Part shown: positions 7,113-42,486 of the stretch, in pieces
Layout: every line of letters starts with the position of its first letter
Numbering within the stretch: position 1 is the stretch's first letter
Virus record (IMG/VR): IMGVR_UViG_3300009149_010517
Location: 1-45,984 of that record
Direction: 5' to 3' (one strand)
DNA length: 45,984 nt
From: a virus
Made by a program: the position numbers and the translations under genes
The notes under the pieces: model-generated
What the model was told of the DNA's origin: nothing
Database searches by the model: none
Seen by the model: only the letters and a program-made list of their open reading frames with translations

Positions 7113-7709
7113 ATGACAAATATATTAAATAATCCTGTATTGGTTCTTAACAAAAGTTGGATACCTATTAGAATAGAAACAGTTAGATCAGCTATTGAAA
7201 GATTATTTTCTGCAAGAGCTGTAGCTATAGATGAAGAATTTTATCAAACATATACTTGGGAAGAATGGTTGCTCTCGTATAGCTTGTCTAGAGAAGTAGA
7301 GTGGACATTCCCATATAAATTCATTAATGCAGTTCATATAAATATTAGACTTCCTGAAGTTGTTTTATTAGTTAAATATAATAAAATTCCTCAAGTTCCT
7401 GTTCGGTTAACAAGAAAAAATTTATTGATAAGAGATTCTTATATGTGTCAATATTCAGGAAAAAAACTTAAAACTAACGAAGCTACTGTAGATCATGTAA
7501 TTCCTAAATCAAGAGGAGGAAAAACCGTTTGGAATAATGTTGTAATTTCTACAAAAGAAATTAATTCTAAAAAAGGGAACAAAACTCTTAAAGAATTTGG
7601 AATGGCTTTATTAAAAAAACCCAAAACTCCAATTTGGAATCCTGTATATACAGCAGGATCTTTAATAACAAGACCTAAATCATGGAGTAAATTTCTAAAA
7701 GAAAAATGA
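7113..7709 (+). CDS. HNH endonuclease
   Basis: The protein has 198 residues. The N-terminal 100 residues match the leader common in this HNH family (VLNKSWIPIRIETVRSAIE). The HNH nuclease core follows: DH at 127-128 in VDHVIPKSRGG, and Asn at 141-142 in WNNVV. Only one Cys (C112) remains where many relatives have a CxxC zinc knuckle. These proteins nick or cut DNA and occur in phages near packaging genes or as free-standing mobile elements. The stop overlaps the next ATG as ATGA, so the two genes are coupled. Confidence 0.9.
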   Translation: MTNILNNPVLVLNKSWIPIRIETVRSAIERLFSARAVAIDEEFYQTYTWEEWLLSYSLSREVEWTFPYKFINAVHINIRLPEVVLLVKYNKIPQVPVRLTRKNLLIRDSYMCQYSGKKLKTNEATVDHVIPKSRGGKTVWNNVVISTKEINSKKGNKTLKEFGMALLKKPKTPIWNPVYTAGSLITRPKSWSKFLKEK

Positions 7710-8580: not shown

Positions 8581-11500
8581 TTGTTATTTTCCATGATAGC
8601 ATTTGAATTATCAGGAGAAAAAAAGAACGTGAAAAATATTATATCTTATGAAGATGCTTTCAAATCATCTGTTAAGTATTTTCAAGGCAACGACTTATCG
8701 GCAAAAGTATTTTTAGATAAATACGCTTTAAGAGACTCTGAATTAAATATATTAGAAGAAAATGCTGATGATATGCACTGGAGATTGACGGACAATATCT
8801 ACAGAATAGAAAAATATAAATATAAGAATCCAATTCCCAGGAAAACAATCTATAACTATTTAAAGAACTTTGGAAAAATCATTCCTCAAGGCTCTCCAAT
8901 GTATGGCATTGGCAATCCATATCAGTTTGTAACATTATCTAGCTGTTACGTGGTAGAATCTCCTAAAGATAGCTATGCTGGTATTATGCGAACAGACGAA
9001 CAATTAGTTCAAATCAGCAAACGAAGAGGAGGAGCTGGATTAGATATATCTGCATTAAGACCAACAGGTGCTCATACATCCAATGCGGCAAGGACATCGA
9101 CAGGTATTATTTCCTTTATGCAAAGATTTTCTAATACCATAAGAGAAGTAGGACAATCAGGTCGAAGAGGAGCATTATTGATCTCTTTAAGCGTCCATCA
9201 CCCTGAAGTTTTGCGTTTTATTTCTTCAAAAAAAGATCTTACCAAGATTACAGGCGCAAATATTTCTGTTAAACTAACAGATGAATTCTTAAAAGCGGTT
9301 GAAGAAGATACAGAATACGAATTAAGATGGCCTGTTGATTCCAGCAATCCTTCTATTCGTAAAAATATCAAAGCTAAAGAAGTCTGGAATGCTATTATAG
9401 AAAACGCATGGACATCTGCTGAACCAGGACTACTATTTTGGGATAACATTATTAGAGAAAGTCCAGCAGATTGTTATTCTGCTTTTGGATTTAAAACAGA
9501 ATCCACTAACCCATGTATTACTTCTGATATGTGGATTATGACAGATATCGGAGCAAAACAAGTAAAAGAACTTATAGATACGCCGTTTACAGCATTGATT
9601 AATGCTAAAAAGTTTGCTTCTACTGATCAGGGATTTTTCCAAACAGGTATTAAAGAAACATATAAAGTCACTACAAAATCAGGATTTATAGTTAATTGTA
9701 CAAAAAATCATCTTATGAAGCATGCAATACGGACAAAACGTGATTATAAATATAAATGGACCGCTCTTGAAAAACTCAATGTGGGTGATTTATTAGTTTT
9801 AGACGGGATATCGACTAATAATAATTGGGGTGAAACAGGGAACTTTGAAGAAGGATGGCTTGTAGGTAGCTTACTTGGAGATGGTGTTGTTGCTGAAAAT
9901 AGTGCTAAACTTTGTTATTGGGGTAATAACAAGATGAAAATGAAAAAACTTGCTTCTAATTTTATACATAATAACTTTAATGCTAGAGCTGACCTAGGAA
10001 GTGGCAGCGCAACTGCTGTTTATGCAATTCAAAGAGATACAACATCGGTAAAAAGCAAAAAACTATGGGATTTTGCATCTGATTTTATTACAAAAAATAA
10101 AGAAGTTAAAACTGAATTAGAACAAACTAGTAGCGAATTTCATAAAGGCTTTATTTCAGGATTATTTGATGCTGATGGAACAGTGTTATATAGTGATGTT
10201 AAAACAAGCAGATCTATTCGATTAAGCTCTGTTAGTATTAGCAATCTTGAAACAGTTCAAAGAATGTTATTAAGATTAGGAATCATGTCTAGAATCTATA
10301 AAAATCGTAAAGATTCCGGATATCGAGACTTACCAGATGGTAAGGGTGGTTATAAAAAATATTTTTGCAAAGTTAATCACGAACTTGTTATTTCAAAAAA
10401 TAATATCCAAAAATTTTCAACAATTATTGGGTTTAAAGATGAAATAAAACAAGAAAAACTTCAGAAGTCTTTAAATTCACTAACAAAAAGAGGACTATAT
10501 TGTGATTATATGGTTGACCCAATCGAAAGTATTAAAAGCATAGGTGAAAAAGAAGTATATGATTGCACTATAAAACATAGTCATGCTTTCTCTGCAAATG
10601 GAATTATTGTTCATAATTGCAGCGAGCTACCTCTTAGTCCTTTAGATTCGTGTCGCCTATTGGTGCTGAATGCTTATTCCTATGTTAAAAAGCCCTTTAC
10701 TAATGAAGCTTTCTTCGATTTTGAAGAGTTTTATCAAGATGCTATTATTGCTCAACGTTTTATGGACGATATCATAGATTTAGAATTAGAATGTATTAAC
10801 AGAATTATAAACAAAATTATATCCGATCCTGAAGACGAAGATATCAAACGAAATGAATTGAATCTATGGAAAAAAATCAGAACCACTTGTGAAACAGGAA
10901 GAAGAACTGGTACAGGCATTACAGGCGTTGCTGATGCACTAGCCGCATCAAACATTTCTTATGGATCAGAAGAAGGCATTGAAGCAGTAGGCCAAATTTA
11001 TAAGTCTTTAAAATTAGGAGCCTATCGCGGCTCAGTAGAATTAGCTAAAGAACTTGGAGCTTTCCCCGTATTTGATACTGAGCTTGAAAAGGACAATCCA
11101 TTTTTAAATCGGATTAAAGAAGAAGACATAGACCTTTGGAATGATATGCAGAAATATGGCAGACGAAATATAGCATGTCTAACTACCGCCCCAGCAGGTA
11201 GTGTAAGTTTGCTTACACAAACAACATCTGGTATCGAGCCATTATTTAAAATGAGTTATAGCAGACGTAAAAAAATTAATCCTAACGATAAAGAAGCTAG
11301 AGTAGATTTTGTAGATCAGCTAGGAGATGCTTGGCAAGAATTTGATGTCTATCATCCTAAGCTTGCGGATTGGATGGCAGTAACAGGAGAAACAGATATA
11401 CAAAAATCTCCTTGGGCTAACAATTGTGCAAAAGATATCAACTGGGAACATAGAGTTAGACTTCAAGCGATAGCGACTCAGCACATTGACCACTCAATAT

Positions 11501-12228
11501 CTTCAACCATAAACTTGCCTGAATCAGCTTCTAAAGAACTTGTTTCACAAATTTACACCAAAGCGTGGAAAAGTGGTTGTAAAGGAATGACAGTTTATCG
11601 TGCCAATTCGAGAACAGGCGTCATGATTGACACAAAAGATAAAGCTAAAAAAGAAAAACCAGAAGAAGATTGCATTGATTGCAAAAGACCAACAAGAGCT
11701 AGCAGCGAAACCGGATCTATTAAAAAAACTCATGCGATTAAAAGGCCAAAAGAACTGCCAAGTCATATCTATCATGTAAAAGTTAAAGGAGAAGCCTATT
11801 TTGTTGTTGTTGGATTATTAGCTAATGAACCTTATGAGGTTTTTGCTGGCAAAAATGGGCACATCCAAAAAGGGAAATATGGTATTACGGCTAAAATCAA
11901 ACGAGGAAAATATCTTCTATTTTCTAAAAATGGAGAATCAATAGAATCATTGGCAGAGCATTCAACAGAAGAGGAAGAAGCTTTGACTAGAATGATATCT
12001 ATCTCTTTGAGGCATGGCGCTGATATCTCTTTTGTAGTTCATCAACTTGAAAAAATCGATGGAGACCTACAAAGCCTTTCTAAGGCTATTGCCCGAACAT
12101 TAAAGAGATATATAGTTGATGGGACAAAAGTGTCAGGAGAGACTTGTATGGAATGCAAAATGAACAGCTTGGTGAGAGAACAAGGCTGTGTCATATGTCA
12201 AAATTGCGGATGGACAAAATGTTCTTAA
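8581..12228 (+). CDS. nrdJ: class II (B12-dependent) ribonucleotide reductase with intein
   Basis: The precursor has 1215 codons; removal of a 368-residue intein leaves about 847. It reduces ribonucleotides to deoxyribonucleotides using adenosylcobalamin. The frame shows LSSCYVV (redox Cys near residue 122), RGGAGLDIS, the active-site N-P-C-S-E motif split by the intein, PAGSVSLLTQTTSGIEPLF, and CKGMTVYRANSR, which is typical of NrdJ. A C-terminal zinc-ribbon-like Cys cluster (CMEC, CQNCGWTKC) follows. The start is uncertain. TTG 8581 lies 16 bases from AGGAGG (8559-8564), ATG 8593 is further away, and GTG 8629 has AGGAG (8613-8617) at a good spacing and gives a family-like N-terminus. dUTPase follows, forming a dNTP-supply unit. 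Confidence 0.95.
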   Translation: MLFSMIAFELSGEKKNVKNIISYEDAFKSSVKYFQGNDLSAKVFLDKYALRDSELNILEENADDMHWRLTDNIYRIEKYKYKNPIPRKTIYNYLKNFGKIIPQGSPMYGIGNPYQFVTLSSCYVVESPKDSYAGIMRTDEQLVQISKRRGGAGLDISALRPTGAHTSNAARTSTGIISFMQRFSNTIREVGQSGRRGALLISLSVHHPEVLRFISSKKDLTKITGANISVKLTDEFLKAVEEDTEYELRWPVDSSNPSIRKNIKAKEVWNAIIENAWTSAEPGLLFWDNIIRESPADCYSAFGFKTESTNPCITSDMWIMTDIGAKQVKELIDTPFTALINAKKFASTDQGFFQTGIKETYKVTTKSGFIVNCTKNHLMKHAIRTKRDYKYKWTALEKLNVGDLLVLDGISTNNNWGETGNFEEGWLVGSLLGDGVVAENSAKLCYWGNNKMKMKKLASNFIHNNFNARADLGSGSATAVYAIQRDTTSVKSKKLWDFASDFITKNKEVKTELEQTSSEFHKGFISGLFDADGTVLYSDVKTSRSIRLSSVSISNLETVQRMLLRLGIMSRIYKNRKDSGYRDLPDGKGGYKKYFCKVNHELVISKNNIQKFSTIIGFKDEIKQEKLQKSLNSLTKRGLYCDYMVDPIESIKSIGEKEVYDCTIKHSHAFSANGIIVHNCSELPLSPLDSCRLLVLNAYSYVKKPFTNEAFFDFEEFYQDAIIAQRFMDDIIDLELECINRIINKIISDPEDEDIKRNELNLWKKIRTTCETGRRTGTGITGVADALAASNISYGSEEGIEAVGQIYKSLKLGAYRGSVELAKELGAFPVFDTELEKDNPFLNRIKEEDIDLWNDMQKYGRRNIACLTTAPAGSVSLLTQTTSGIEPLFKMSYSRRKKINPNDKEARVDFVDQLGDAWQEFDVYHPKLADWMAVTGETDIQKSPWANNCAKDINWEHRVRLQAIATQHIDHSISSTINLPESASKELVSQIYTKAWKSGCKGMTVYRANSRTGVMIDTKDKAKKEKPEEDCIDCKRPTRASSETGSIKKTHAIKRPKELPSHIYHVKVKGEAYFVVVGLLANEPYEVFAGKNGHIQKGKYGITAKIKRGKYLLFSKNGESIESLAEHSTEEEEALTRMISISLRHGADISFVVHQLEKIDGDLQSLSKAIARTLKRYIVDGTKVSGETCMECKMNSLVREQGCVICQNCGWTKCS
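9514..10617 (+). mobile_element. intein with LAGLIDADG homing endonuclease, inside the reductase
   Basis: A 368-residue in-frame insertion starts with Cys (CITSDMWIMTD) and ends with VHN, and the next residue is Cys. Splicing motifs are visible: block B T-K-N-H, block F VYDCTIKHSHAFSANG, and the terminal HN. Two endonuclease motifs, VGSLLGDGVV and SGLFDADGTV, mark a homing endonuclease. The insertion lies between TNP and CSELPL, so the +1 cysteine is the reductase's thiyl-radical cysteine. The element both splices itself out and could copy itself into intein-less alleles. Confidence 0.93.
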
Positions 12229-26755: not shown

Positions 26756-29476
26756 ATGGCGATAAGTATTAATCAAAATAAAGAAGCCTTGGATAGAAAA
26801 AGACGCCTTGTTGCGACATCATTAACAGAGACACCTGGTTCTCAAAATATCCATGATAATGCAAGACAATATTCTAACAGCTCTAGAGTAAATATTCCTA
26901 TTACTAAAGCTGCTCAATTTGCAGGATCAGCTGCAAATACAATACACACTCAGCCAATGTTCTTTAGCCCTTTACACACGCCTCAGAACTGGCAAATCGC
27001 AAGCAAAAAGAGAGAAATTTATCAATGGTCAAGATTTTATTATGAAAATGATCCTAAAGTAGCTGCTGGCATAGATTTTTATTGTTTCCCTCCTACTTCT
27101 CAAGTTTTAATGGCAGATGGAGAACAAAAATCTATTAGCACAATTAAAAAAGGCGATTTAGTTAGGAGTCATGACGGCAGTTGTAATCAAGTTGAAGAAA
27201 TTCATAAAAGAAAAGCAGATGAAAATCTATTTCATATTAAAATTGCTGGAATTAAGAATGGAACATTAAAAACTACAGCTGGCCACAAAATATTAGTTGA
27301 CAGGAATGGGGATGTCAATTGGATACAAGTTTGGGAATTAAAAAAAGGAGATTATTTATTAACTCCAATTAATTATGAAGCTAATTTTAGCAATAAAAAT
27401 TTCATTAAAAGAAAAGTTTTAAATATAAAAACACAACAATATAAAGGTGATGTATATGATCTAACAATTAACGATACTCATACTTATGTTGTTAATAGAG
27501 TTGCAGTCCACAATTCGGAATTTCCAATTAATGGATTCAAGCTTGAGTGTAAAAATAAAACAATTTTAAAATATTTTGAGAAATTAGTTAAAGATTTAAA
27601 ACTAAACCATTGGATAAAAGCCATTAGTCATGAATACTTCTTGTTAGGAGATGTTTATCCTTTTCTAGAGATAGATTGTCCAGAATGTCATGGTTCTGGT
27701 GTCTTGCCTGATGGCGAAGTTTGTAACCACCCAGGTGGAAAATTTAGAAGATTGGTTGTATTAAATCCAGATTGGATTGAAGTACAAAAAAACGTTTTAG
27801 CTAGCGAACCTGTTATTTCTTTGGTTCCTGATGAAGAATTAAGAATGATCGTTAGTAGACAAGAACCAAAACAAATCTTTAATAGATTGCCTTCAAGATT
27901 AGTAGATATGGTTATGGCAGGATCTCCTATTCCTCTTTCTAATAGATGTGCTAGTCATATTGCCAAAAACGCTAGTCCTTATGGGGCATATGGAACATCA
28001 TTAATTCGTAGACTATTTACTACGTTAGCTTATAAGACTAAATTAATAACAGCTAATTGGATTGTGGCAGAACGACTTATTATACCGATTAGAGTTGTTA
28101 AAGTTGGAGAAGAAAAGAGACCAGCAACTGCTGATGACATTCAAGATGTTTCAGATCAATTAGCCGCAGTCGCTAATGATCCTAATGTAACTATAGTAAC
28201 TCACCATGCTTTTGATCTTGAATGGTACGGAGCTTCTGGCAAGATACACAATATTACAGCAGAATTAGAGCAAATTGGCAAAGAGATGCTTGATGGTTTG
28301 ATGCTCAATCAAAGCTTACTCAACGGCGAAATGAGCAGTTACAGTTCTGCACAAGTTGGTGTTGAAACGATGATTAGACGACTTGAAGGATGGAGAATTA
28401 AATTAGCTGATTGGATTGAAGATCATATCTTTTTACCAACAGCTATGATGCAGGGATTCGTTGATCAAGAAGATAGTGAAGAAATGAATGAAACCATATA
28501 TCTTTATCCCGAAGTTAAATGGAATGATTTAAACTTAAGAGATAACTCTAATGAATTGCAGTTACTAATGCAGTTACACGATAAAGGGCTTATTTCTTCT
28601 CAAAAATTATTAGAAGAATTTGATATTAATTATGATCAAGAAACCAGAAGATTAAGAGACGAAAAATTATTAGTTGGACCAGGTGGAGCTATAGGAGGAG
28701 GCGGTATGCCAATGCCTATGGGAGGCGGTATGCCAATGCCTGGTGGTGATATGGGAGGCGGTATGCCAATGCCTGGTGGTGATATGGGAGGCGGCATGCC
28801 TGGTGGTGATATGGGAGGCGGTATGCCAATGCCTGGTGGCGATATGGGAGGCGGCATGCCTGTCGGTGCATTAGCTGGTGCTGGTGGAGATCCACAAATA
28901 AATTCTAATTTAAAAATTGGTAAAAGAGGCAAAGGCGGCAAAAGTCTTACGGAACAAACTCAAATGCCTGCTCCAACATTTATAAAATTAACTAATTTAG
29001 AAAGTAAAATGTATAAAGTTTTAAGCTTATTAGACGCTCCATATCAACTATATGGACAATATCAAGTAAAAATGGCGGGTGAACAACAACCTTTTGTTTT
29101 AGATTTTGCATATCCTCAAATAGGAGTTGCTATTGAAACAGATGGAGCGATGTGGCACGAAAGACTTGATCTTAAAACAAAAGATCAAAGCAGGGATCAA
29201 AAGTTAGCTAATGTTGGTTGGCGCATTTTAAGATTTAAAGAAGATGCTTTAAATAATAATATTAATGACATTCAAAACATTATACATCAAAACATTATAG
29301 AAGCTGCTGAAGAAAAGAAACAAAGAACAAAAAAAAGTAAAACAAATGATGTTTTGCTCAAAATTGCTTCTTTAGATAGTTTATTAGAAAAAGATAATGT
29401 TATTGTCAAAAAACAAGTATTACCTAATGATTTAGGTTATATATGGTTAATTGGATCTGGAGAAAATAATGGATAA
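26756..29476 (+). CDS. portal protein with mini-intein and C-terminal DUF559/Vsr-like domain
   Basis: The precursor has 906 residues; removing a 144-residue intein (110-253) leaves 762. The portal forms the dodecameric ring through which DNA enters and leaves the head. Portal signs are YYENDPKVAAGIDFY joined to SEFPINGF after splicing, the segment near LLGDVYPFLEIDC, an ASPYGTSLIRR-like stretch, and SQVGVETMIRRLEG-like helices near the clip and crown. A Gly/Met/Pro-rich spacer (about 645-705) leads to residues 743-855. That end resembles DUF559/Vsr-like PD-(D/E)xK nucleases: FVLDFAYP, AIETDGAMWH, and DQKLANVGWRILRF. Whether this domain cuts DNA is unknown. Confidence 0.88.
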   Translation: MAISINQNKEALDRKRRLVATSLTETPGSQNIHDNARQYSNSSRVNIPITKAAQFAGSAANTIHTQPMFFSPLHTPQNWQIASKKREIYQWSRFYYENDPKVAAGIDFYCFPPTSQVLMADGEQKSISTIKKGDLVRSHDGSCNQVEEIHKRKADENLFHIKIAGIKNGTLKTTAGHKILVDRNGDVNWIQVWELKKGDYLLTPINYEANFSNKNFIKRKVLNIKTQQYKGDVYDLTINDTHTYVVNRVAVHNSEFPINGFKLECKNKTILKYFEKLVKDLKLNHWIKAISHEYFLLGDVYPFLEIDCPECHGSGVLPDGEVCNHPGGKFRRLVVLNPDWIEVQKNVLASEPVISLVPDEELRMIVSRQEPKQIFNRLPSRLVDMVMAGSPIPLSNRCASHIAKNASPYGAYGTSLIRRLFTTLAYKTKLITANWIVAERLIIPIRVVKVGEEKRPATADDIQDVSDQLAAVANDPNVTIVTHHAFDLEWYGASGKIHNITAELEQIGKEMLDGLMLNQSLLNGEMSSYSSAQVGVETMIRRLEGWRIKLADWIEDHIFLPTAMMQGFVDQEDSEEMNETIYLYPEVKWNDLNLRDNSNELQLLMQLHDKGLISSQKLLEEFDINYDQETRRLRDEKLLVGPGGAIGGGGMPMPMGGGMPMPGGDMGGGMPMPGGDMGGGMPGGDMGGGMPMPGGDMGGGMPVGALAGAGGDPQINSNLKIGKRGKGGKSLTEQTQMPAPTFIKLTNLESKMYKVLSLLDAPYQLYGQYQVKMAGEQQPFVLDFAYPQIGVAIETDGAMWHERLDLKTKDQSRDQKLANVGWRILRFKEDALNNNINDIQNIIHQNIIEAAEEKKQRTKKSKTNDVLLKIASLDSLLEKDNVIVKKQVLPNDLGYIWLIGSGENNG
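27083..27514 (+). mobile_element. mini-intein in the portal protein
   Basis: A 144-residue insertion starts with Cys (CFPPTSQVLMADGEQK) and ends with VAVHN before Ser. Block B is TAGH and block F is VYDLTINDTHTYVVN. No endonuclease domain is present, so this is a splicing-only remnant that cannot home by itself. Joining the flanks gives GIDFY-SEFPINGF, a normal portal sequence. Confidence 0.9.
28695..28862 (+). repeat. Gly/Met/Pro tandem repeats in the portal gene
   Basis: Repeated units of about 33 bp, plus shorter ones, encode GGGMPMPGGDM. They make a flexible linker between the portal body and the nuclease-like domain. An open - strand Pro/Ile-rich frame over the same bases is an artefact of the repeat. 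Confidence 0.8.
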
Positions 29477-30729: not shown

Positions 30730-33700
30730 ATGTCATTTAACAAAAAAGCAGGTCAACAGAAAACTTTGATAGAAGCACTAAATGTGCCTAATTGGAATGA
30801 ATATAATTTAAAAATTGTAAAAACAGCATCAATAGAAAAATCTGATGATTTAAATGGGTTTGATATTGCATCAGCTGTTAAAAAATATCCAGAACATTTG
30901 TTTGTTAAAGTATTTGCTATTAAGAAAGATGAAATTAATGATAATGGAGATGCTTTTTCTGAAAAAGAGCTTAAAAAAGCATATTCTTCTTTTATTGGTG
31001 TCCCAATTTTTTGTAATCACCAAAATTCAGATATAGAAAAAGCTCGCGGGAATGTAGTTCATTCTTGGTACGATAATAAAAAAGGTGGAATTTTTATTGT
31101 AGCAAGAGTAGACAGAGTCGCATATCCAGATTTAGTAAGAGGAATTGAGCAAGGCTATGTAAATGGGACCAGTATGGGAGCTATGTCTGGAGATTCTGAG
31201 ATTACAATGTCTGATTTTTCAAAAAAGAAAATATCAGACATTAGAGTTGAAGAAGAAGTTATTTCTCATTTAGGAAATAAATGCAAAGTAAAAGAAATAC
31301 ATAGTGATTATTTAGGAACTCCTCTAATAAAGTTTGATTTAGGCAACATAACCGAAAGCCCTTTATTTACCTTTGACCATCCTATTTTATCTATTCGTAA
31401 AAGCGAAATTTTAGAACAACGAAAAATAAATCCTAAAAATTGGCGTAATGTTCCATATGATTGTATTTTTAGAGAAGCTAAAAACTTATTTTTAGAAGAT
31501 TTTTTACTTATTCCATCTAGATACAAATTAACACAAGATAATCAATTTGATTTAGATTTTTATTATTTACTAGGAGCCTTTACTGGTGATGGTTATATCA
31601 AATTCAACAAAGGAAAAATAGAAGGATTTGGTTTTTGTTTTGGAAAAAATGAAATTAATTTAATTGAAAAGATTAAAAATATTTTATCTAAATTTACTAC
31701 ATATTCAATTAATGAAAATATTATTGATGCTCGCAACGGAAATTACATTACCATTTATGATAGAAAATTAGCTAAAAAAATAGATAATATTATTGGACAT
31801 GGAGCTCATTCAAAAAGAATTAATTTACAAAGCATTAGCAAAGAAGCAATTAAAGAATTTTTAGCAGGATATATTGATACCGATGGCTGCATGGTTAAAG
31901 ATTATACTAGTTGTAAAAATGATGTTAGAGGTTTCCAGATATCTAGTTGTAATAAAAAATTGCTTGAAGACATTCGTTCTATGTTAATTTTATTAGATTG
32001 TCCTTCAGGAATCCAAACTAATATTAGAGAACCTAATAAAAATAGCCTTGTTGATATAAAAACAATTGAACATACATTATTTATTAATTTATTTACTTCT
32101 TCAAGAATTTTTAATTCTATAAAAGTTGCTAAACATCTAGATGGATATACAGCTTCTTATAGTAATACCCATAATTTTATATTTGAAATTGAAAATAAAA
32201 AATATATTGCTTGTAGAATTAAAGGAATAGATTTAATTGATAATTTTGAAGAAGAAGTTTATGATTTAACAATTGAAAAAGATGCTAGTTATATTGCAAA
32301 TAGTTTAGCTGTTCATAATTGCAGCGTCGAAGCAAGTTGCTGCTCAATTTGTCACCATTGTGCTGCTACAGCAGATGAATATTGTGAACATGTTAGAGAT
32401 CGCAAAAACAAGAAATTTAGTGGAGCCATAACTTGTCAATATCACAATAGCAGTACTAAAGCAGAAGGCTACGAAGATAAATGTCCTATTTGTGGATGCA
32501 CAAAAGAAGAAGCTAATGAATTAACACACAAAGAAGCTCAAATATATGAAAACAATTATGGAATTAAATTTATAGAAGATAGCTTTGTTGTTAATCCAGC
32601 TTGTCATGATTGTTTGGTACAAGAAATACTTAATAAACAAGGTATGTCTGAAAAAATAGCTGATATATCTAAAAAAATAAATTCTCTATCAAAAGTAGCT
32701 TGCTCTACAGGTTCATGCAATATAAATAAAGTAGCGGGGAAAACAGAAATAGAAGATCTTAAAGAAGCTATGAATAAAATTGAACGAGTTGCTCAAAGTA
32801 TGATGCAACAAAAACAACATATTTCTATGGAATATGTAAGTGATCTAGTTGATGCTTTAGCAAATGTTCAATCAATTACAGACGAACTTGTTGAAATGGG
32901 ATATTCTCAATTACCTTCTCCTAATGTAGTAGGAGGAGTTCAAACAATTACTGATGAGTCGGCAATAACTAATCCACAACAACAACCACAACTACAACCA
33001 CAACCACAACAATCTTCTTTATCTACTCCTTCACTTGTTAATCAAGATCTAGATGGATTAGGATCTGTAACAAAACCTAAATATTCTTCAAAAAAAGAAG
33101 AAAAAAAAGAGGAGTTTAAAGTAGCTATCCATAACTTAATAAAAGAATTACATACAACTTCAGCAGGGTTAGAAAAAGAAGCCCTAAATAATATCTCTGA
33201 AAAGGAGCCATTTAATATGGAAAACGTTAAAACTAGTCAAGGTGATTCATTGCTTGACAAAACAGCAGAACAACAAGATGTAATTACTGAAAAACAACTT
33301 GAAAACGCTTCTGGAGCTGGTGAAAGACAACATGAAGATTTGAACATTATTACAGAAAAACAACTTGATTCTCCAAGAGATGTGAATCAAACGACTAGTG
33401 TTTCACCTCAAAAACGATCCGAGTCTTTTGATGTTATCACAGAAAAGCAACTTGATAATGTTACTAGCGGTATTGTTGCTCGTTGGGGAGATTTTCCAGA
33501 AGTAATTACAGAAAAACAATGGACAGAAACCAGTAGACGAATTGGCTCTGTTTTAAGCTGTGATCAAGATAATGTAATAACAGAAAAACAATTACAAAAT
33601 TTCCTTTCTCATTCAGGATATACTGAACCAGATGTTATTACTGAAAAGCAGTTAGAAGGCAGCAACACAGATCAAAACAAAAGAGCATCTTCAGTAAAAG

Positions 33701-36531
33701 ATATGGTCAAAGCTGCTGAGTTAGCTATCGCTGATTGTATTTCGTGTTTCGGGAAAACTCCTAAAGAAATTCAAAAAGCTGCTTCTTCTTTTACAGATAA
33801 CCCTAAGAATTATGACAAAGCAGCTTATATGCTTTTGATTAACTCGTTCCCTCATAAGCTTGACGACAGAAAAGCAAAGAAAGAAAAGTATACTTATCTT
33901 TCCAAATTAGCTTCTGAAGCGATTGAAGGACCCAATTCTAAAGATTCTTTAATTATCAGTATGAGCGATAATCTCAGCGGCATGAAAGCTGAAAACATGA
34001 TTGATGCTGTTAATTATGTTTTAAGCGACAAACAAGCCATGAGCCAAGTAGAATCTATGGTTAAAGAAAAAATGTCATCTAAAGAAGAAGATAGCACTGT
34101 ATTGAGCAAGAAAGCTCAATTTGAAAGTGCTGTTAAAGAACTTGATCGTCCAGAAGATGGCATATATCAAATTCATGCTGCATTGAGCGAGATTAATGCA
34201 GATCCTAAAAAACAAAATTTATTTATTCAAGAAGTTCAAAAATATGCAAGCAATTTAATCAATGATGATACGGTAAAGGTTGTTATTACAAATATTGATT
34301 TAGATAGCAAACAAGATATTGTTATAGCAACAGCTAAAGATGCTTCATTTTTATCAAATGAAGAAAGAGAATCATTAGCTTTGATGGAACAAAAAGAAAA
34401 AGAAAACGAACAAGAAAACCTTGAAGAAACTGAAATAGAGCGTTTAAAAAGACGACAAGGATTAGGAGCAAGAGCTTCAAGAAAAGCTATGAGACAATCC
34501 TTAGTTAAAGAAGCACAGTTGGCTGGCGGAGAAATGGGCGGACAAGGCGGACTTTCACAAGCTCCTGGCGCAGGCGCAAGCTTACCACAACCTCCTGCTA
34601 ATGCTTTAGGTGAAGCTCCTGTAGAAAGTTTTGAACAATCAGATATGGTAGATGTAGATGTTGATGCTGAAAATGCTGCACCTAAGCCTCCAGGCGCAAT
34701 GTGCGTTGTATGCGGTTCTAATGATGTAGATATCATTAAAGGCGAAGGTAAATGTAACAACTGCGGTTCTGAAATGCAGTTTAAAGTCAATATTACTGTA
34801 ACAAAATGGGCAGATTTCCTTGAAGACAATGTAGATGAAGAAGAAGAAGTAAATGAAGTATTAGAAGGTGAAGGATTTGAAATGCCAACAGATGGAGAAT
34901 TAGCAACAGCATCTGTCAAATCAAAAATGACAAAGAAAGCTAGCATTAAAGAAGCTACTATAAAATTTGCGACAATGATTAAACTTAATTCTAAAGCAAT
35001 GAAGCAAGCAGAAAAAGAAGGCATAGCAATTGGATCAGTTAGTCCAATTACAGGATCTACAGATACTGTTAATCTTGGAAATGGAAAAAGAGCTTGTCTT
35101 GATAGCGGAATAGAATATCAAGTTCTTTATGCTGTTCGCAAAGATAAACCTGAAGAAGTTTATGCTGAATGGCGATGGGAAACTAAGAAAAATGCAGAAT
35201 GCACATCTTGTAGCAGAATGAAACAAGCTTTTGTTAAGGCTTTAAGCGATATCGGGGTTACAGAAGAGCAATTTGATAATTCAGATTTAAAAACAAAAGC
35301 TGATCATATTCTTCATATGAAAAAAGCTGGAACTTTACAAACAATTAAAACAGCCAGTAAAAAAGCTGGATCTGTTATTGATGAATACAAGCAAGTATTT
35401 GCTTCTCAGTTCGGAGATAAATTCCCAATTGAATCTTGTCGTGAACGATTGGCAAGACGATATGGATTAAACGCTCTTGCTTTAAGCGGACCTTGCGAAG
35501 GAAAACCTTTATATGATTGCGTATGCAATTCTCTAAAGAAAGCTGATGTTTATTCAAGTAAATTAGCTATAAAAGTTGCTGAAGTTTGGAGCGACAAAAA
35601 CGCTTCTTCAGAATGCTTAGAAGACTATATTAGAATGGGATATGGTCTCAAAGAAGCATCATGCATTTGTGAAGCAATGAAAATGAAATATGCACAATTT
35701 GAAGATGAATTTACAGAAGAATTAGAAGAAACAATTGAAGATAATGTAGATCAAGTAGATGACGTTGAAATGGAAGATACTGGAATGGAAGACGTAGATC
35801 CATTTGAAGACATTAATGATGACACAGTAACAATTGAACTTCCAAAAGAAACCGCTAAAGAACTTGAAGAAGTTTTAGATGTGGTTTTAGGAGAAGACGT
35901 TGAAGGTGTTGAAGGCGTTGAAGGTGTTGAAGGAGTTGAAGACGTTGAAGACGTTGAAGACGTAGCAGATGAAGATGTTGAAGCTGTTATAGATGTTGAT
36001 GTTGATACTCCTGCTTTTGATGGTGATGTAACAGATGAAGGCGTAGAAGACGAAACAGATGGAATATCTACCAATGACGAAGAAGTCAAAGACTTAAGAG
36101 GACAAGGTCAAGGACATGGTAAAGGACTTGGACTTGGACTTGGGCTTGGACTTGAAAATCCTGAAGAAGCTGTAGAAGTAGAATTTGCAGAAGTTCCAGA
36201 AGAAGGCGAAGTGTGTCCTTTAACAGAAGAAGTCGAAGAATGTCCTTTAATAGAAGAAGGCGAAGAAGCGATGGGAACTGTTGATGACATTAAAGAAGAT
36301 ATCATAGAAGATATTGCTGAAAAAGTTGTTGAAAAACTTCAAGAAAAAGAAGGAATTGAAATAGAAGATGTTGAAACAGAAGAAGTTGGAGATGAAATAG
36401 TAGATGAAAATGAAGAATTTAAAGAAGGACAAGATGAATGGAATGATGACGAACAAGGAGAGATTGGAACAGCATTAACAGCTAGCGAAGAGGAAAAGTT
36501 TGTGAAAGAATCTAATAAAATGAAACATTGA
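30730..36531 (+). CDS. giant prohead-protease-like head protein with intein and ITEKQ repeats
   Basis: This 1933-codon gene is the largest in the window. Residues 1-150 resemble the phage prohead protease type of the S78 group, with NENGD-like NDNGDAFSEKEL, His97 in FCNHQ and Ser148 in GTSMG. An intein (151-530) follows. After it come Cys-rich knuckles (CCSICHHCA, CPICGCTKEE). Residues 850-975 carry six VITEKQ repeats. Further on are a zinc ribbon (CVVCGSNDV, CNNCG), more Cys-containing helical parts, and a very acidic tail with VEGVEG and GLGLGL runs. It ends at TGA, but the frame stays open beyond. It may be a protease plus scaffold polyprotein. Confidence 0.75.
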   Translation: MSFNKKAGQQKTLIEALNVPNWNEYNLKIVKTASIEKSDDLNGFDIASAVKKYPEHLFVKVFAIKKDEINDNGDAFSEKELKKAYSSFIGVPIFCNHQNSDIEKARGNVVHSWYDNKKGGIFIVARVDRVAYPDLVRGIEQGYVNGTSMGAMSGDSEITMSDFSKKKISDIRVEEEVISHLGNKCKVKEIHSDYLGTPLIKFDLGNITESPLFTFDHPILSIRKSEILEQRKINPKNWRNVPYDCIFREAKNLFLEDFLLIPSRYKLTQDNQFDLDFYYLLGAFTGDGYIKFNKGKIEGFGFCFGKNEINLIEKIKNILSKFTTYSINENIIDARNGNYITIYDRKLAKKIDNIIGHGAHSKRINLQSISKEAIKEFLAGYIDTDGCMVKDYTSCKNDVRGFQISSCNKKLLEDIRSMLILLDCPSGIQTNIREPNKNSLVDIKTIEHTLFINLFTSSRIFNSIKVAKHLDGYTASYSNTHNFIFEIENKKYIACRIKGIDLIDNFEEEVYDLTIEKDASYIANSLAVHNCSVEASCCSICHHCAATADEYCEHVRDRKNKKFSGAITCQYHNSSTKAEGYEDKCPICGCTKEEANELTHKEAQIYENNYGIKFIEDSFVVNPACHDCLVQEILNKQGMSEKIADISKKINSLSKVACSTGSCNINKVAGKTEIEDLKEAMNKIERVAQSMMQQKQHISMEYVSDLVDALANVQSITDELVEMGYSQLPSPNVVGGVQTITDESAITNPQQQPQLQPQPQQSSLSTPSLVNQDLDGLGSVTKPKYSSKKEEKKEEFKVAIHNLIKELHTTSAGLEKEALNNISEKEPFNMENVKTSQGDSLLDKTAEQQDVITEKQLENASGAGERQHEDLNIITEKQLDSPRDVNQTTSVSPQKRSESFDVITEKQLDNVTSGIVARWGDFPEVITEKQWTETSRRIGSVLSCDQDNVITEKQLQNFLSHSGYTEPDVITEKQLEGSNTDQNKRASSVKDMVKAAELAIADCISCFGKTPKEIQKAASSFTDNPKNYDKAAYMLLINSFPHKLDDRKAKKEKYTYLSKLASEAIEGPNSKDSLIISMSDNLSGMKAENMIDAVNYVLSDKQAMSQVESMVKEKMSSKEEDSTVLSKKAQFESAVKELDRPEDGIYQIHAALSEINADPKKQNLFIQEVQKYASNLINDDTVKVVITNIDLDSKQDIVIATAKDASFLSNEERESLALMEQKEKENEQENLEETEIERLKRRQGLGARASRKAMRQSLVKEAQLAGGEMGGQGGLSQAPGAGASLPQPPANALGEAPVESFEQSDMVDVDVDAENAAPKPPGAMCVVCGSNDVDIIKGEGKCNNCGSEMQFKVNITVTKWADFLEDNVDEEEEVNEVLEGEGFEMPTDGELATASVKSKMTKKASIKEATIKFATMIKLNSKAMKQAEKEGIAIGSVSPITGSTDTVNLGNGKRACLDSGIEYQVLYAVRKDKPEEVYAEWRWETKKNAECTSCSRMKQAFVKALSDIGVTEEQFDNSDLKTKADHILHMKKAGTLQTIKTASKKAGSVIDEYKQVFASQFGDKFPIESCRERLARRYGLNALALSGPCEGKPLYDCVCNSLKKADVYSSKLAIKVAEVWSDKNASSECLEDYIRMGYGLKEASCICEAMKMKYAQFEDEFTEELEETIEDNVDQVDDVEMEDTGMEDVDPFEDINDDTVTIELPKETAKELEEVLDVVLGEDVEGVEGVEGVEGVEDVEDVEDVADEDVEAVIDVDVDTPAFDGDVTDEGVEDETDGISTNDEEVKDLRGQGQGHGKGLGLGLGLGLENPEEAVEVEFAEVPEEGEVCPLTEEVEECPLIEEGEEAMGTVDDIKEDIIEDIAEKVVEKLQEKEGIEIEDVETEEVGDEIVDENEEFKEGQDEWNDDEQGEIGTALTASEEEKFVKESNKMKH
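31180..32319 (+). mobile_element. Ala1 intein with LAGLIDADG endonuclease, in the protease-like gene
   Basis: A 380-residue in-frame insertion begins with Ala (AMSGDSEITMSDF), not Cys or Ser, and ends with LAVHN before Cys. Block B is TFDH and block F is VYDLTIEKDASYIANS. Two endonuclease motifs, LGAFTGDGYI and LAGYIDTDGCM, are present. Extein residues GTSMG-CSVEASC rejoin cleanly. Ala at position 1 with Cys +1 is the class 2 pattern. Block F has Asp, not Cys, at its fourth position, so it is not class 3. Confidence 0.85.
33277..33657 (+). repeat. six VITEKQ repeats in the giant head protein
   Basis: Six units of (D/N/E)-V/I-I-T-E-K-Q-L/W begin at 33277, 33343, 33430, 33499, 33571 and 33631. 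They are 20-29 residues apart, with variable DNA between them. The motif is conserved while the spacers are not, which is unlike simple slippage repeats and points to selection on the motif. Confidence 0.85.
35905..35966 (+). repeat. tandem repeat encoding VEG/VED units
   Basis: A run of GTTGAAGG-type 9-bp units encodes VEGVEGVEG then VEDVED in the acidic tail of the giant head protein. A 6-bp GGACTT repeat follows at about 36126-36151. Both stay in frame and could vary in copy number. Confidence 0.75.
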
Positions 36532-36738
36532 TATATAGGCAGAACAGGTGAAATTGGTTTAGATCTTGATTCTGTATTAAGTGTTTTAAATAAAACAGCT
36601 GGCGAAAAAGACATTACTCAACAAAATGCTCAAGATTCTCCTGATATAGGAAAAATTCAAGATAATAAAACAATAGGAGATGAAGACAAGTTCTCAGACG
36701 GTGTAGATTCTCCTGAAATTAATTCTGGTAAAGCGACA

Positions 36739-37647
36739 ATGGGAAAAGAAGAAACAGATGCAAATCCTGACAAAGCACCTAAGATCAAAATTCCTGTTGG
36801 CAGCAAGCCTATGGGCCACGAAAAAGAACAAGGTCTTGAAGGCGGCGACAATAGATATACAGGTGGCGACGGAGGACAAGGTAAGGCATCTCATTCAACA
36901 AGAGAACAGATATCTAACTTAGCTGACCGTATCATTGAAGCTCAAGAAAAAAAAGTTGTAAGAAAACCTCCACAAGATGATGAAGATGTTAAGCCTTATT
37001 CTGCTGGAGATCAAAGTTTTCTAGGCGATGAAAAAGCAAGTATTGGATCTGTTCCTAAAGCAGACCCTAAACCAGGAACAATTCCTGCAACAGGAAATGG
37101 TTTTTTGGGAGATGAAAAAGCAAGTATTGGCGAACAGCCAACTGACAAAGATACTCCATCAATTCCTGTAAAAGATGAAAGAATTGATGGCGAAAAAGAT
37201 AATAAAGAAATTGCCCCTGAAAAAGAAGAGAATGTAACGGGGCTTCGCGGTGCTAACGCTAGTAGCGAAAAAGAGCCAAAAGACAATGCAAATGAAGCGA
37301 TAAGAATTGCAGGAAGAATGTTAGCTAATCATATGATTACAGCTAATAGTCTTTCTCAAAAAATCGCAGAATTGCAAAGTTATAAAATTCATCAACTACA
37401 TGATCTTGAAAAAGGCATGTTTGTTGAGAAAAAAGGACTCGCTGCATCGTCAGACGGGATTGAACAACCCGTAATTATAGGACAAGCAAGTAGCGACAAG
37501 GAAGCTCAAAATCGTAATAACATTACGATCAAAGAAGCTCAAAGCGAATTGACAAATAAGCTTCAAAGCATATTTAGTCTTGATAAACAAAATGTTCAAG
37601 CCGAACAAGATAATAATGCTGAACTTCGTAAAGTCTTTAATAGATAA
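36739..37647 (+). CDS. continuation of the giant head protein after an in-frame TGA
   Basis: The region from 36532 to 37647 is open in the same frame as the giant protein. The first ATG is at 36739 (302 residues), with no good SD. The sequence between the TGA (36529-36531) and that ATG reads as coding, with segments such as GLDLDSVLSVLNKTA, and it carries the first copy of a repeat (SGKATMGKEE / GSKPMGHEKE / FLGDEKASIG) that continues past the ATG. The C-terminal half (residues 190-302) is helical with ELQSYKIHQLHDLEKGMF. So the natural protein may be a readthrough or nonsense-interrupted fusion. Confidence 0.7.
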   Translation: MGKEETDANPDKAPKIKIPVGSKPMGHEKEQGLEGGDNRYTGGDGGQGKASHSTREQISNLADRIIEAQEKKVVRKPPQDDEDVKPYSAGDQSFLGDEKASIGSVPKADPKPGTIPATGNGFLGDEKASIGEQPTDKDTPSIPVKDERIDGEKDNKEIAPEKEENVTGLRGANASSEKEPKDNANEAIRIAGRMLANHMITANSLSQKIAELQSYKIHQLHDLEKGMFVEKKGLAASSDGIEQPVIIGQASSDKEAQNRNNITIKEAQSELTNKLQSIFSLDKQNVQAEQDNNAELRKVFNR

Positions 37648-38333: not shown

Positions 38334-39203
38334 ATGTCTATGACTAAAAATCTTACCGATGCCGAAAAGCAAGAAGTTATTGCTCAAGCTTTACAAACAG
38401 ACGAAGGAAGAACCGCTTTAGCGCAAGCTATGGTTGAGCCTATTCGTCGTTCGTTAGAGTATCAGGCCGTTGGTCGTAAGCTTTTGATGGTTGACGAACT
38501 TCCTCAAGGTGCCCTTGCACGATACGAACGAGATGTTGCGTCTATCGCTCATGTCGTTAGTCGTAGAGGCGCTGTTCCAGATCAGATCCAAGAAGGCGAA
38601 GAAATTCTTGTTCCTACTTTTGAAATCGCTGCGAACCCAACTGTTCGTTTGTCTGAAATCAAAGCTCGCAGATTCTACATTGTAGACCGCGCGCAAATCA
38701 AGGCTAAAGAAGCTATTCAGAAAGAAGAAGATACAAATATCTTTAACGCTCTGATTGCTGCTGCTAATACCCTTGGTACACAAGTAGTAACAAACGTTGG
38801 TTCTTTAAGCACTGCTTCTTTGAACACTGCTTATAGACTAATTGAGCAGCATGATCTTGTTTGCACAAAAGTTGTTATGCAAGCAAACCGTTTTGCTGAT
38901 ATTCGTTTGTTTGGTAAAGATTTCTATGACGAAGCAACCCAAAGAGAAATCATCACCACAGGTCTTTATGGACACCTTTGGACGGCAGATCTCCACGTTA
39001 GCTCAAGAATGGCAACAGATACTGTTCTGTTAGTTGCCTCTCCTGATACCGTTGGAGCTTTCCCAATCCGACAAGATATTTCCGTATTGCCTGCTGATGA
39101 TCCTAAGAAACTTAGGCTCGGTTGGGTTATCTACGAAGAAGTGGGTATAGTCGTGATTAACGATTATGCTGTATCAACGATTGAAGTAACAGAAGCTACT
39201 TAA
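38334..39203 (+). CDS. major capsid protein (HK97-like)
   Basis: The 289-residue protein forms the head shell. An AAGGAG lies upstream of the ATG. The N-arm is helical (LTDAEKQEVIAQALQTDEGR), and the core shows ELPQGALARYERDV, FEIAANPTVRLSEIKARRFY and LGWVIYEEVGIVVINDYAVSTIEV, as in HK97-fold capsids of large phages. Codon use is richer in G+C than the rest of the window, as expected for high expression. A strong terminator follows 27 bases later. The protein is short for an HK97-type capsid but complete. Confidence 0.85.
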   Translation: MSMTKNLTDAEKQEVIAQALQTDEGRTALAQAMVEPIRRSLEYQAVGRKLLMVDELPQGALARYERDVASIAHVVSRRGAVPDQIQEGEEILVPTFEIAANPTVRLSEIKARRFYIVDRAQIKAKEAIQKEEDTNIFNALIAAANTLGTQVVTNVGSLSTASLNTAYRLIEQHDLVCTKVVMQANRFADIRLFGKDFYDEATQREIITTGLYGHLWTADLHVSSRMATDTVLLVASPDTVGAFPIRQDISVLPADDPKKLRLGWVIYEEVGIVVINDYAVSTIEVTEAT

Positions 39204-39265: not shown

Positions 39266-39357
39266 ATTCTTTCTTGTCGTCATTGCCATTGAGGGAGAAA
39301 TTTATTAGTAATTAACTATATATTTACTAGCAAGTGTGTCTATATAATAATTATAAT

Positions 39358-42300
39358 ATGTTTATTATGAAAAATAAAATAAACTATACTACAATATTAA
39401 ATAAATCTTTTTTTGAAAAATATTATAATCAAAAGCGAATGTCTTTTCCTGCTATAAACAAAATGTTAACAAATAAAGGATATAATATTGCAACAGGTAC
39501 TATATACAAATATGCTAAACAATTGGGTTATGGAAGAACTATTGCAGATGCAACAAGTGATCTTGATTATAATGATTCTTTTTTGACCTCAGATATTCTT
39601 GCTGCTCTTGATGGATTTATATTAGGAGACGGATCCATTAGTATAACTCTTGGCAAAAATTATAATGTTGGCAGATTGGCGTGTGGCTTAGAACACAAAG
39701 AATTTGCAGATTTTCTAATGAGTTATTTTGCCCCTTACCTAGCTAGTGTATCTATGTATAAAGATAGTCATATGAAAAATGGAATTAGATATGATGGGAG
39801 AACGCTTGCTCATCCTGATCTTTATCAGCAATATTTAAGATGGTATCCTCAAAATGATCAAAATGGACAAAAAAGCAAACAACCTCCTGATGATGTTGTT
39901 ATTAACAAAACATCTGTTTTGCTTTGGTATTTAGGAGATGGGAGTGCCGTCCAGAGCGATAATTCTATTTCTATAAGATTATCTACAGATTCATTTTTGC
40001 CAGAAAAAGTTATATTTTTAGCAAACAAGTTAAAAGAAAAAGATATTTATTGTCATCGCAATAATGATAATAGAATTTATATAGAAGCAAAAGGGATACC
40101 TGCATTTTTTGATTTAATTGGGATGCAGTCTCCTATAAAATGTTATGATTATAAATTTCAACTACCTGAATGGAGATTTGAATCAAAAAGAATGAGAGAT
40201 GTCGCGGAAGAATTAAACATAGAGTATCATCAATTAAGTTATTTAGTAAAATCAGGACGTATTCCATGCCATAGAGCTTCAGAAAAAGGAAGACCAAGAT
40301 TTTTAACTGAACATGTTTCTATTTTAAAAACATATATTTCAGAAAATACAATAAAAATAAAACCCTATTGTCCGCTTGTTTTTAAAAACGAGAAAAACCC
40401 CTCTAATGGTCAAGAAAGAAAAATACACAATTATTGTTCTGAAATTTTAAAAGAACAAACAATAGAAGAATATGGTTATAACCCAGATCAACTTGGTCGA
40501 ACTTCATCTAAATTTGTTATAGCTATATGTAGATTTTGTGGTAAAGAGATGCCTATAAGAAAAGGGTTTTTTAATAAAGCAGGTTCTGCTTGCCATAAAG
40601 AATGTAGAATACAAGAACAAAAGATTAAAGGTTCTCCATTTCTAGATGTTAAAGTAAGAGAAAAAGCTCAAGAAACTAATTTAAAAAGATATGGAACTAA
40701 ACAAGCAAGTCAAAATAAAGATATTGCTAAAAAAATATCTAAAACTAAACTTACTGATGATAGTAAAAATAAATCCAAAGAAACTAACTTAGAAAAGTAT
40801 GGAGTTAAAAACGTTTTTCAATCAGAAGAAATAAAGCAAAAAATAGAAGAAACTAATATAAAAAAGTATGGAGTAAAAAGTCCTATACAAAACGAAGACA
40901 TAAAAAATAAAATAAAACAAACTAATTTAGAAAGATATGGCGTTGAAAATCCCTTACAATCAAATGTAATACGTGATAAAACAAAAAAGACTAATTTAGA
41001 AAAATATGGTGCTGAAAATCCGCAACAAAACACACACATAAGAGATAAAACAGTTAAATCGTGGAAACAAAATATCTTTTCTGGCAATAATGACAATTAT
41101 AAACTTATTAATATTTTAAAAGGAAAGCCCTTTTGGGATAAGTTAGAAACCGGCATAACGTTAAAAAATATTTGTAAAGAATATGATATTAATTATCAAA
41201 GCACAACAGCTGCTCTTCTTCGTCCTGAATTTAAAGAAAAATATTATTCTGTTTATTCTTTTCCTAAGCAGCAAAAACAAAAAGAAATTTTTGATTGGTT
41301 GAAAGCAAATGGTTCTAATGTTCTTTTTAATGATAGAACAGCTATTGCTCCTTTAGAGCTAGATATTTATGATCCTAAAAATAAAGTGGCAATAGAATTT
41401 AATGGAAGCTATTGGCACTCTGAAGCCTTTCTAGATAGAGATATCGCTAAAAATAAGCACGCAACAAAAACAAGATTATGTCAAGAAAAAGGAATACGTC
41501 TTATTCATGTTTTTGAACATACTTATCTTGAAAAAGAAGAACAGTTTAAAAATTTTCTCAAATCTGCTTTTGGTTTAAACAAAAACAAAATAGCTGCAAG
41601 GAAATGTTCTATTACTAACAGAGATTCAAGTGTTTTTTTAGAGAAATACCATATTCAAGGGAAGCCAATAAAAGTAATTAAATATTTTAATTTAGAATAT
41701 AACAATGAAATTATAGGTTGTATGACAGCGGGTCTCCACCATGAAAGGGGAGGCGATAGAACTGCTTGTGTCTTGTCTAGATTAGCCTTTAAGAGCGATA
41801 CAACAGTACAGGGGGGTAGTTCTAAGTTATTTAAATACTTTGTCACATGGGCAAAGGAGAACGAATATTCAACTATAATATCATGGTCAGATAATTGTAT
41901 TTCTGAAGGAAAAGTATATAATATTCTTAAGTTTCATTTAGAAAAAGAATATGATAAAAGTTATTTTTATTTTGATATTATTAATAAAAAATATTGCACA
42001 AAGCAATCTCAAAGAAAAACAAATAAAGAACGACCTGAAGGAATGACTATTGTTGATTGGAATAATTCTAGAGGAGTTTATGCAATTTGGGATTGCGGAA
42101 AGAAAAAATGGACGTACAATATTAATAAAAGCCAACATTATCAACAAAAAGAAATTATCGATTTAACTAATATATTACAAGAAAATCTTTCTTTTGATCT
42201 TATAAAAAAACAACATAAAGGAATTACACCTATACATGGAGCTTGTTATATCGCTTCAGAAGCTTTATACCACCTGCTAAAAGAAAATTATCAATTGACT

Positions 42301-42486
42301 ATTAAACGATATAAAATAGATCAAATAACTCATTGGTGGTTAGAGTGCAATGGAGCAATAATAGATCCGACAAAAGAACAGTTTGATTTCGATTATCCTT
42401 ATTGTTTCGGCAAAAAATGTAATTTTCTTACTAAAGAGCCTTCAAAAAGATGTAAAATATTACTAGAAAGAATGAAAAAATATTAA
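39358..42486 (+). CDS. mosaic homing endonuclease with C-terminal Cys-His-Asp domain
   Basis: This 1042-residue free-standing protein joins several nuclease and accessory parts. There is a LAGLIDADG pair (LDGFILGDGSI near residue 85, LLWYLGDGSAV near 189) and an HTH-like piece near 280. About five repeats of the TNLERYGVENP type (DUF7487-like) follow at 438-563. A Vsr-like PD-(D/E)xK domain comes next (LDIYDPKNKVAIEFNGSYWH, near 675), then a GNAT-like part (745-890). The C-terminus (955-1028) carries a possible C963/H992/D1003 triad, as in transglutaminase/cysteine-protease folds. I chose ATG 39358; a GTG at 39334 is in frame, and neither has a good SD. It sits directly after the capsid terminator. 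Confidence 0.8.
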   Translation: MFIMKNKINYTTILNKSFFEKYYNQKRMSFPAINKMLTNKGYNIATGTIYKYAKQLGYGRTIADATSDLDYNDSFLTSDILAALDGFILGDGSISITLGKNYNVGRLACGLEHKEFADFLMSYFAPYLASVSMYKDSHMKNGIRYDGRTLAHPDLYQQYLRWYPQNDQNGQKSKQPPDDVVINKTSVLLWYLGDGSAVQSDNSISIRLSTDSFLPEKVIFLANKLKEKDIYCHRNNDNRIYIEAKGIPAFFDLIGMQSPIKCYDYKFQLPEWRFESKRMRDVAEELNIEYHQLSYLVKSGRIPCHRASEKGRPRFLTEHVSILKTYISENTIKIKPYCPLVFKNEKNPSNGQERKIHNYCSEILKEQTIEEYGYNPDQLGRTSSKFVIAICRFCGKEMPIRKGFFNKAGSACHKECRIQEQKIKGSPFLDVKVREKAQETNLKRYGTKQASQNKDIAKKISKTKLTDDSKNKSKETNLEKYGVKNVFQSEEIKQKIEETNIKKYGVKSPIQNEDIKNKIKQTNLERYGVENPLQSNVIRDKTKKTNLEKYGAENPQQNTHIRDKTVKSWKQNIFSGNNDNYKLINILKGKPFWDKLETGITLKNICKEYDINYQSTTAALLRPEFKEKYYSVYSFPKQQKQKEIFDWLKANGSNVLFNDRTAIAPLELDIYDPKNKVAIEFNGSYWHSEAFLDRDIAKNKHATKTRLCQEKGIRLIHVFEHTYLEKEEQFKNFLKSAFGLNKNKIAARKCSITNRDSSVFLEKYHIQGKPIKVIKYFNLEYNNEIIGCMTAGLHHERGGDRTACVLSRLAFKSDTTVQGGSSKLFKYFVTWAKENEYSTIISWSDNCISEGKVYNILKFHLEKEYDKSYFYFDIINKKYCTKQSQRKTNKERPEGMTIVDWNNSRGVYAIWDCGKKKWTYNINKSQHYQQKEIIDLTNILQENLSFDLIKKQHKGITPIHGACYIASEALYHLLKENYQLTIKRYKIDQITHWWLECNGAIIDPTKEQFDFDYPYCFGKKCNFLTKEPSKRCKILLERMKKY

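What the first reader, a model, noticed from the sequence alone, without database searches (positions are those of the whole stretch)
30730..36531. Protease-like domain at the head of a giant repeat protein: a self-processing scaffold polyprotein?
An S78-like protease start (H97, S148 in GTSMG) heads a 1933-codon protein with zinc knuckles, six VITEKQ repeats and a long acidic tail. In many phages the protease and scaffold are separate or shorter. Six evenly spaced conserved motifs with variable spacers look like cleavage or binding sites. The inference is that the protein acts as both protease and scaffold and cuts itself at ITEKQ.
Basis: partly seen in the sequence, partly recalled or inferred. 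Interest (0 to 1): 0.7.

Follow-up and report, generated by a model that had tools for sequence, protein, structure and literature searches.

The report
Self-splicing insert in phage capsid protease

Summary
Observation confirmed: one 1933-codon ORF with H97, S148 (GTSMG), Cys-rich fingers, six [VI]ITEKQ motifs and an acidic tail. Missed: residues 151-530 (nt 31180-32319) are an intein with a LAGLIDADG endonuclease, inserted two residues after the catalytic Ser (GTSMG|A...HN|C). Intein-free relatives read GTSMGCSVE. Of 55 non-redundant contigs, 24 carry inteins at three sites within 26 residues (G|TSMG 7, GTSMG|C 15, in the following zinc finger 2). The tree needs at least 11 gains or losses: mobile parasites in a protease active site. 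The N-terminal domain is a T4 gp21/herpes/HK97-like prohead protease (H97, S148, likely E616); gene order portal-protease-small gene-major head protein is conserved. Protease plus long scaffold-like tail in one chain is known in kind (P2 gpO). Cleavage at ITEKQ is possible but not supported: the Glu is Gln in whole clades, the most constant residue is the last Q, and the motif was not found in neighbouring portal or capsid ORFs. A repeated docking motif fits better. An in-frame TGA (36529-36531) truncates a C-terminus that is continuous in relatives. Splicing and cleavage could not be tested.

The parts
30730..31179 (+). N-extein: N-terminal part of the prohead protease (residues 1-150), ending in GTSMG
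   Evidence: phrog_18299 head maturation protease and phrog_2774
31018..31020 (+). His97 codon (CNHQN), candidate catalytic His, invariant in relatives
31171..31173 (+). Ser148 codon (GTSMG), candidate nucleophile, invariant in relatives
31180..32319 (+). Intein with LAGLIDADG homing endonuclease (residues 151-530, 380 aa): Ala1, TFDH 214-217, LLGAFTGDG and LAGYIDTDG, VYDL, HN|C531
   Evidence: Pfam LAGLIDADG_3 8.4e-13 and Intein_splicing 8.8e-8; TIGR01443 6.8e-6; PI-SceI fold match 2.8e-16; empty site in relatives
32320..32694 (+). Start of C-extein: rest of protease with a Cys/His-rich insert (C538 to C588) and the FIEDSFVVNPAC motif
32575..32577 (+). Glu616 codon (FIEDSFVVNPA), candidate third catalytic residue, invariant
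   Evidence: assignment by motif resemblance to S78 proteases, inferred
33280..33654 (+). Six [VI]ITEKQ[LW] motifs (33280, 33346, 33433, 33502, 33574, 33634), conserved in position in relatives
34702..34767 (+). Zinc-ribbon-like CVVC...CNNC
35710..36528 (+). Acidic low-complexity tail (39% D+E)
36529..36531 (+). In-frame TGA; 27 of 43 relatives with a residue there have Gly, and they read through
36532..37647 (+). C-terminal continuation of the same protein in relatives (window ORF 36739-37647 is its downstream part)
26756..29476 (+). Context: portal protein, itself with a 144-aa mini-intein at 27083-27514 and a C-terminal DUF559 nuclease-like domain
38334..39203 (+). Context: major head protein
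   Evidence: phrog_2522 2.7e-65

Best explanation
This is a fused capsid-maturation (prohead) protease and scaffold/core protein whose protease domain has been invaded by a mobile intein. The intein excises itself from the translated precursor and joins GTSMG to CSVE (inferred), rebuilding the active-site segment; its LAGLIDADG endonuclease presumably spreads the insert between phages by cutting intein-free alleles at this conserved codon stretch (inferred). The restored protease (His97, Ser148, probably Glu616, with a zinc-finger insert between the last two) heads a roughly 1900-residue chain that probably acts inside the prohead as scaffold or core and is digested at maturation, as P2 gpO and the T4 core are (inferred). 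The six VITEKQ motifs are most likely repeated short docking motifs within a largely disordered stretch; their being cut by the protease is possible but second choice.
For: Intein: Pfam LAGLIDADG_3 and a sub-cutoff Intein_splicing hit, intein_Cterm above cutoff, blocks A, B, F, G and both LAGLIDADG motifs in order, PI-SceI fold match 2.8e-16 with pLDDT about 75-94 over most of the intein, intein-free orthologues with the exact empty site, Pfam Hint/LAGLIDADG hits in inserts at all three sites. Mobility: three sites and several intein types, at least 11 presence/absence changes on the host-protein tree, close pairs with and without insert. Protease: phrog_18299 2.2e-15; top 12 Foldseek hits all T4 gp21 or herpes proteases; invariant H, S, E; cultured relatives annotated prohead or capsid maturation protease; gene order. 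Fusion: every relative with a complete frame has protease and tail in one ORF (L068 and L070 are frameshifted contigs).
Against: No splicing, cleavage or virion data. The protease model is of low confidence (overall pLDDT 51; best VIA Z to gp21 4.9) and no Pfam S78/S77 model is reached. The scaffold role rests on position, size and composition. The window copy has an in-frame TGA before its last 371 codons.
Confidence: 0.8

Rival explanations
1. One reading: the protein is a polyprotein that cuts itself at the six ITEKQ sites (after ITE as T4 gp21 does, or after the Q), releasing short peptides and dismantling the scaffold.
For: T4 Alt is processed at ITE-6 and LTE-619, and phiKZ/SPN3US/T4 enzymes cut after Glu in a short motif (PMC5694885); six copies kept at protein level with different codons; low-confidence, mostly unstructured prediction there.
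Against: Glu is Gln at all six positions in L042 and L058 and mixed in their kin; Q at the sixth motif position is kept in 97% and W at repeat 4 in all 45; spacers are conserved too; motif not found in other ORFs of the loci, portal and capsid included.
Confidence: 0.25
2. The intein is an adaptive timer: the protease stays inactive until splicing, so maturation is delayed until the prohead is built.
For: Insertion two residues after the nucleophile (window) or one residue before it (site a), separating Ser from the probable third catalytic residue.
Against: Close relatives lack it; different inteins sit at different sites; carriers usually have an endonuclease; insertion at conserved motifs is the usual habit of homing inteins (PMC5050341).
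Confidence: 0.08
3. The N-terminal domain is a degenerate, non-catalytic relative of prohead proteases kept only as an assembly domain.
For: No Pfam protease model is reached.
Against: H, S and E invariant across 26 intein-free and 13 intein-bearing relatives; PHROG head maturation protease hit.
Confidence: 0.08

Closest known systems
Bacteriophage P2 gpO (protease-scaffold fusion, PMC7552001)
   Same: N-terminal capsid protease followed by a scaffolding part in one chain that cleaves itself and the capsid protein
   Different: gpO is 284 residues with no intein, zinc finger or VITEKQ repeats known to me; this chain is about 1900 residues; no sequence match was tested
Giant protein of Ceeclamvirinae (Myrna gp97, phrog_2774) and Rhodococcus phage E3 gp77 'prohead protease'
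   Same: Homologous N-terminal protease (about 30-40% identity), long C-terminal part, same place between portal and major head protein
   Different: 895-1236 residues, no intein, no VITEKQ-like motifs
T4 gp21 / herpesvirus assemblin fold proteases
   Same: Top fold matches of the N-terminal domain
   Different: Zinc-finger insert between Ser and the last candidate catalytic residue; giant fused tail; weak model
Phage inteins in conserved motifs, e.g. TerL with seven sites in mycobacteriophages (PMC5050341)
   Same: Sporadic homing inteins at several sites in one phage gene, at functional motifs
   Different: Host protein here is the capsid-maturation protease, which the passages read of that survey do not list
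Class 2 (KlbA) inteins (PMC4031507)
   Same: Ala1, Cys+1, Thr B:7, His B:10, Asp F:4
   Different: KlbA inteins have Ser at G:6; the window intein has His

Membership tests
Intein (Hint plus LAGLIDADG) | Splicing blocks at both ends and Asn at the C-terminus followed by Cys/Ser/Thr | tested here: met
Intein (Hint plus LAGLIDADG) | Exact in-frame insertion with intein-free alleles | tested here: met
Intein (Hint plus LAGLIDADG) | Hint/PI-SceI fold | tested here: met
   E 2.8e-16
Intein (Hint plus LAGLIDADG) | Self-splicing and homing activity | not testable with these tools
   needs expression and endonuclease assays
Class 2 (KlbA-type) intein | Ala1 with Cys+1 | tested here: met
Class 2 (KlbA-type) intein | Ser at G:6 (all members known in 2014, PMC4031507) | tested here: not met
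   His at G:6 (VHN|C); so not filed as KlbA-type
Class 3 intein | Cys at F:4 of the WCT triad | tested here: not met
   Asp at F:4 (VYDL)
Prohead protease (HK97 S78 / T4 gp21 / herpes) | Ordered catalytic His, Ser in a small-residue motif, acidic residue before an SxVxxPA-like motif | tested here: met
   H97, S148, E616 FIEDSFVVNPA invariant; function of each residue inferred
Prohead protease (HK97 S78 / T4 gp21 / herpes) | Protease fold | tested here: inconclusive
   top 12 Foldseek hits are gp21/herpes proteases (prob up to 0.99, E 0.017) but low-confidence model and VIA Z 4.9
Prohead protease (HK97 S78 / T4 gp21 / herpes) | Match to a family model | tested here: met
   phrog_18299 head maturation protease 2.2e-15; no Pfam S78/S77 hit of weight
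Protease-scaffold fusion (P2 gpO-like) | Protease and long C-terminal part in one chain, between portal and capsid genes | tested here: met
Protease-scaffold fusion (P2 gpO-like) | C-terminal part needed for procapsid assembly and cleaved | not testable with these tools
   needs assembly assay and proteomics

The most novel reading that the evidence does not exclude
Protein splicing gates capsid maturation in these phages: the intein keeps the prohead protease off until the shell is built, and the Ala1/His(G:6)/Cys+1 inteins at this site splice by direct Cys+1 attack although they are not KlbA-type, which would make them a separate class-2-like group.
Probability: 0.1. Interest if true: 0.75.

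Novelty: new variant of a known kind. Interest (0 to 1): 0.5.

Why it matters
In the papers searched, a capsid-maturation protease is not reported as a host for inteins, and here it is a hot spot: three insertion points within 26 residues around the catalytic serine, with both Cys1 and Ala1 inteins at one and the same junction. It gives a natural series of empty and occupied alleles for testing whether splicing speed limits phage head assembly, and it warns that such protease genes may look broken or giant because of inserts. The fused protease, zinc finger and conserved repeat region also define a tractable scaffold family for large uncultured phages.

Tried and rejected
ITEKQ as a general cleavage motif of the phage: scanning 208,849 residues of ORFs in the loci found no site outside the giant protein except one at the N-terminus of a relative of it and a fragment of it on a frameshifted contig. 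Repeats as recent DNA duplication: rejected by differing codons. Alternative genetic code for the TGA at 36529: not favoured, since 7113-7709 ends in TGA at an ATGA overlap with the next ORF and TAA is the main stop. Intein family search in IMG/VR with the window intein: patterns matched but no relative confirmed; in cultured phages only distant Hint matches in P1-type dmt and a crAss-like TerL. Protease relatives in the bacterial genome set by pattern scan: none confirmed. Tail of the protein in cultured phages: no match. The solved-structure search by sequence with the protease gave only a chance zinc-finger match. VIA rows above T4 gp21 are helical matches to residues 277-345 and say nothing about the protease.

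Full report
Observation. Six [VI]ITEKQ motifs against 0.0004 expected in shuffled protein is far beyond chance. Their codons differ between copies, so the likeness is held at protein level.

What was missed. Pfam finds LAGLIDADG_3 (8.4e-13) and, below its curated cut-off, Intein_splicing (8.8e-8) in the protein, and NCBIfam's intein C-terminal region is over its cut-off. Intein-free relatives from IMG/VR read GTSMGCSVE without a break where the window has GTSMG, 380 residues, then CSVE. The insert runs from Ala151 to Asn530 (nt 31180-32319) with Cys531 as +1 residue. It has the expected blocks in order, TFDH, LLGAFTGDG, LAGYIDTDG, VYDL and VHN|C, and its model matches PI-SceI at 2.8e-16. The closest insert is that of L063, 68% identical; inserts of the other types at the same point are 22-28% identical to it.

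A hot spot in an active site. Among 55 contigs (near-duplicates removed), 31 have no insert and 24 do: seven between G and TSMG (Cys1, Thr+1), fifteen between GTSMG and C (two Ala1 types and a Cys1 type), and two in the following zinc finger. Inserts tested from all three sites score as Hint/LAGLIDADG. On a tree of the host domain (45 rows), presence or absence changes at least 11 times and insert type 19 times, no better than shuffled labels for type. Pairs such as L030/L052, L029/L054 and L033/L061 share 75-92% DNA identity around the point and differ by the insert. This is the pattern of mobile inteins. The papers found with intein and prohead or maturation protease, in the passages read, place inteins in other genes, and the mycobacteriophage survey passages list terminase, portal and DNA-metabolism hosts; this is absence in the searched library only.

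Intein class. Ala1, Cys+1, His at B:10 and Asp at F:4 resemble class 2, but known class 2 inteins are KlbA orthologues with Ser at G:6, and here it is His. The second Ala1 type (ATRG/ASRG) has Tyr instead of Asp at F:4 in the alignment. I therefore call them class-2-like and not class 2. Whether they splice is not shown.

Protease. The N-terminal domain hits phrog_18299 head maturation protease (2.2e-15) in an intein-free relative. Its twelve best Foldseek matches are T4 gp21 and herpesvirus proteases, although the model is of low confidence and the VIA Z is only 4.9. His97, Ser148 and Glu616 are invariant; Glu616 sits in FIEDSFVVNPA, which resembles the E-S-V-PA motif of S78 proteases (own knowledge). 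Cultured relatives are annotated prohead protease in Rhodococcus phage E3 and capsid maturation protease in Gordonia phage Pupper. The order portal, protease, small gene, major head protein holds in the relatives.

Scaffold and repeats. Every relative with a complete frame joins protease and tail in one ORF, and no separate scaffold gene is evident between portal and capsid gene in the window; a scaffold or core role is inference, with P2 gpO as the known precedent. The motif is [VI]-I-T-[EQ]-x-Q-[LW]: Q 97%, T 91%, Glu 80% and Gln 18% at the fourth position, and Trp in all 45 at repeat 4. T4 gp21 does cut at ITE, so cleavage after Glu fits the window, but not the clade with Gln at all six places. 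Spacers are conserved and the motif was not found in neighbouring ORFs. The region is predicted mostly unstructured with short helices starting at the motif. A docking motif used six times fits best; cleavage remains open.

C-terminus. An in-frame TGA at 36529-36531 ends the window ORF, while the frame stays open to 37647 and relatives read on. Nonsense mutation, assembly error and readthrough cannot be told apart here.

Noticed in passing
26756-29476 (intein 27083-27514): The portal gene holds a 144-aa mini-intein (residues 110-253, +1 Ser), and portals of relatives have large insertions at this and other points; the same intein pool seems to feed portal and protease.
   Followed up: partly
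portal residues 740-906 (about 28973-29473): A DUF559/Vsr-like nuclease domain at the portal's C-terminus, with a match beside the portal in nearly all relatives.
   Followed up: partly
8581-12228: Ribonucleotide reductase large subunit with a third intein carrying LAGLIDADG_3.
   Followed up: no
39334-42486: Large ORF combining LAGLIDADG_2, DUF7487 and homing-endonuclease PHROG matches, just after the major head protein gene.
   Followed up: no
36529-36531: In-frame TGA splitting a protein that is one frame in relatives.
   Followed up: partly
L064:8460-9182: A 241-aa insert at the GTSMG|C site without recognisable LAGLIDADG motifs, possibly an intein losing its endonuclease.
   Followed up: no
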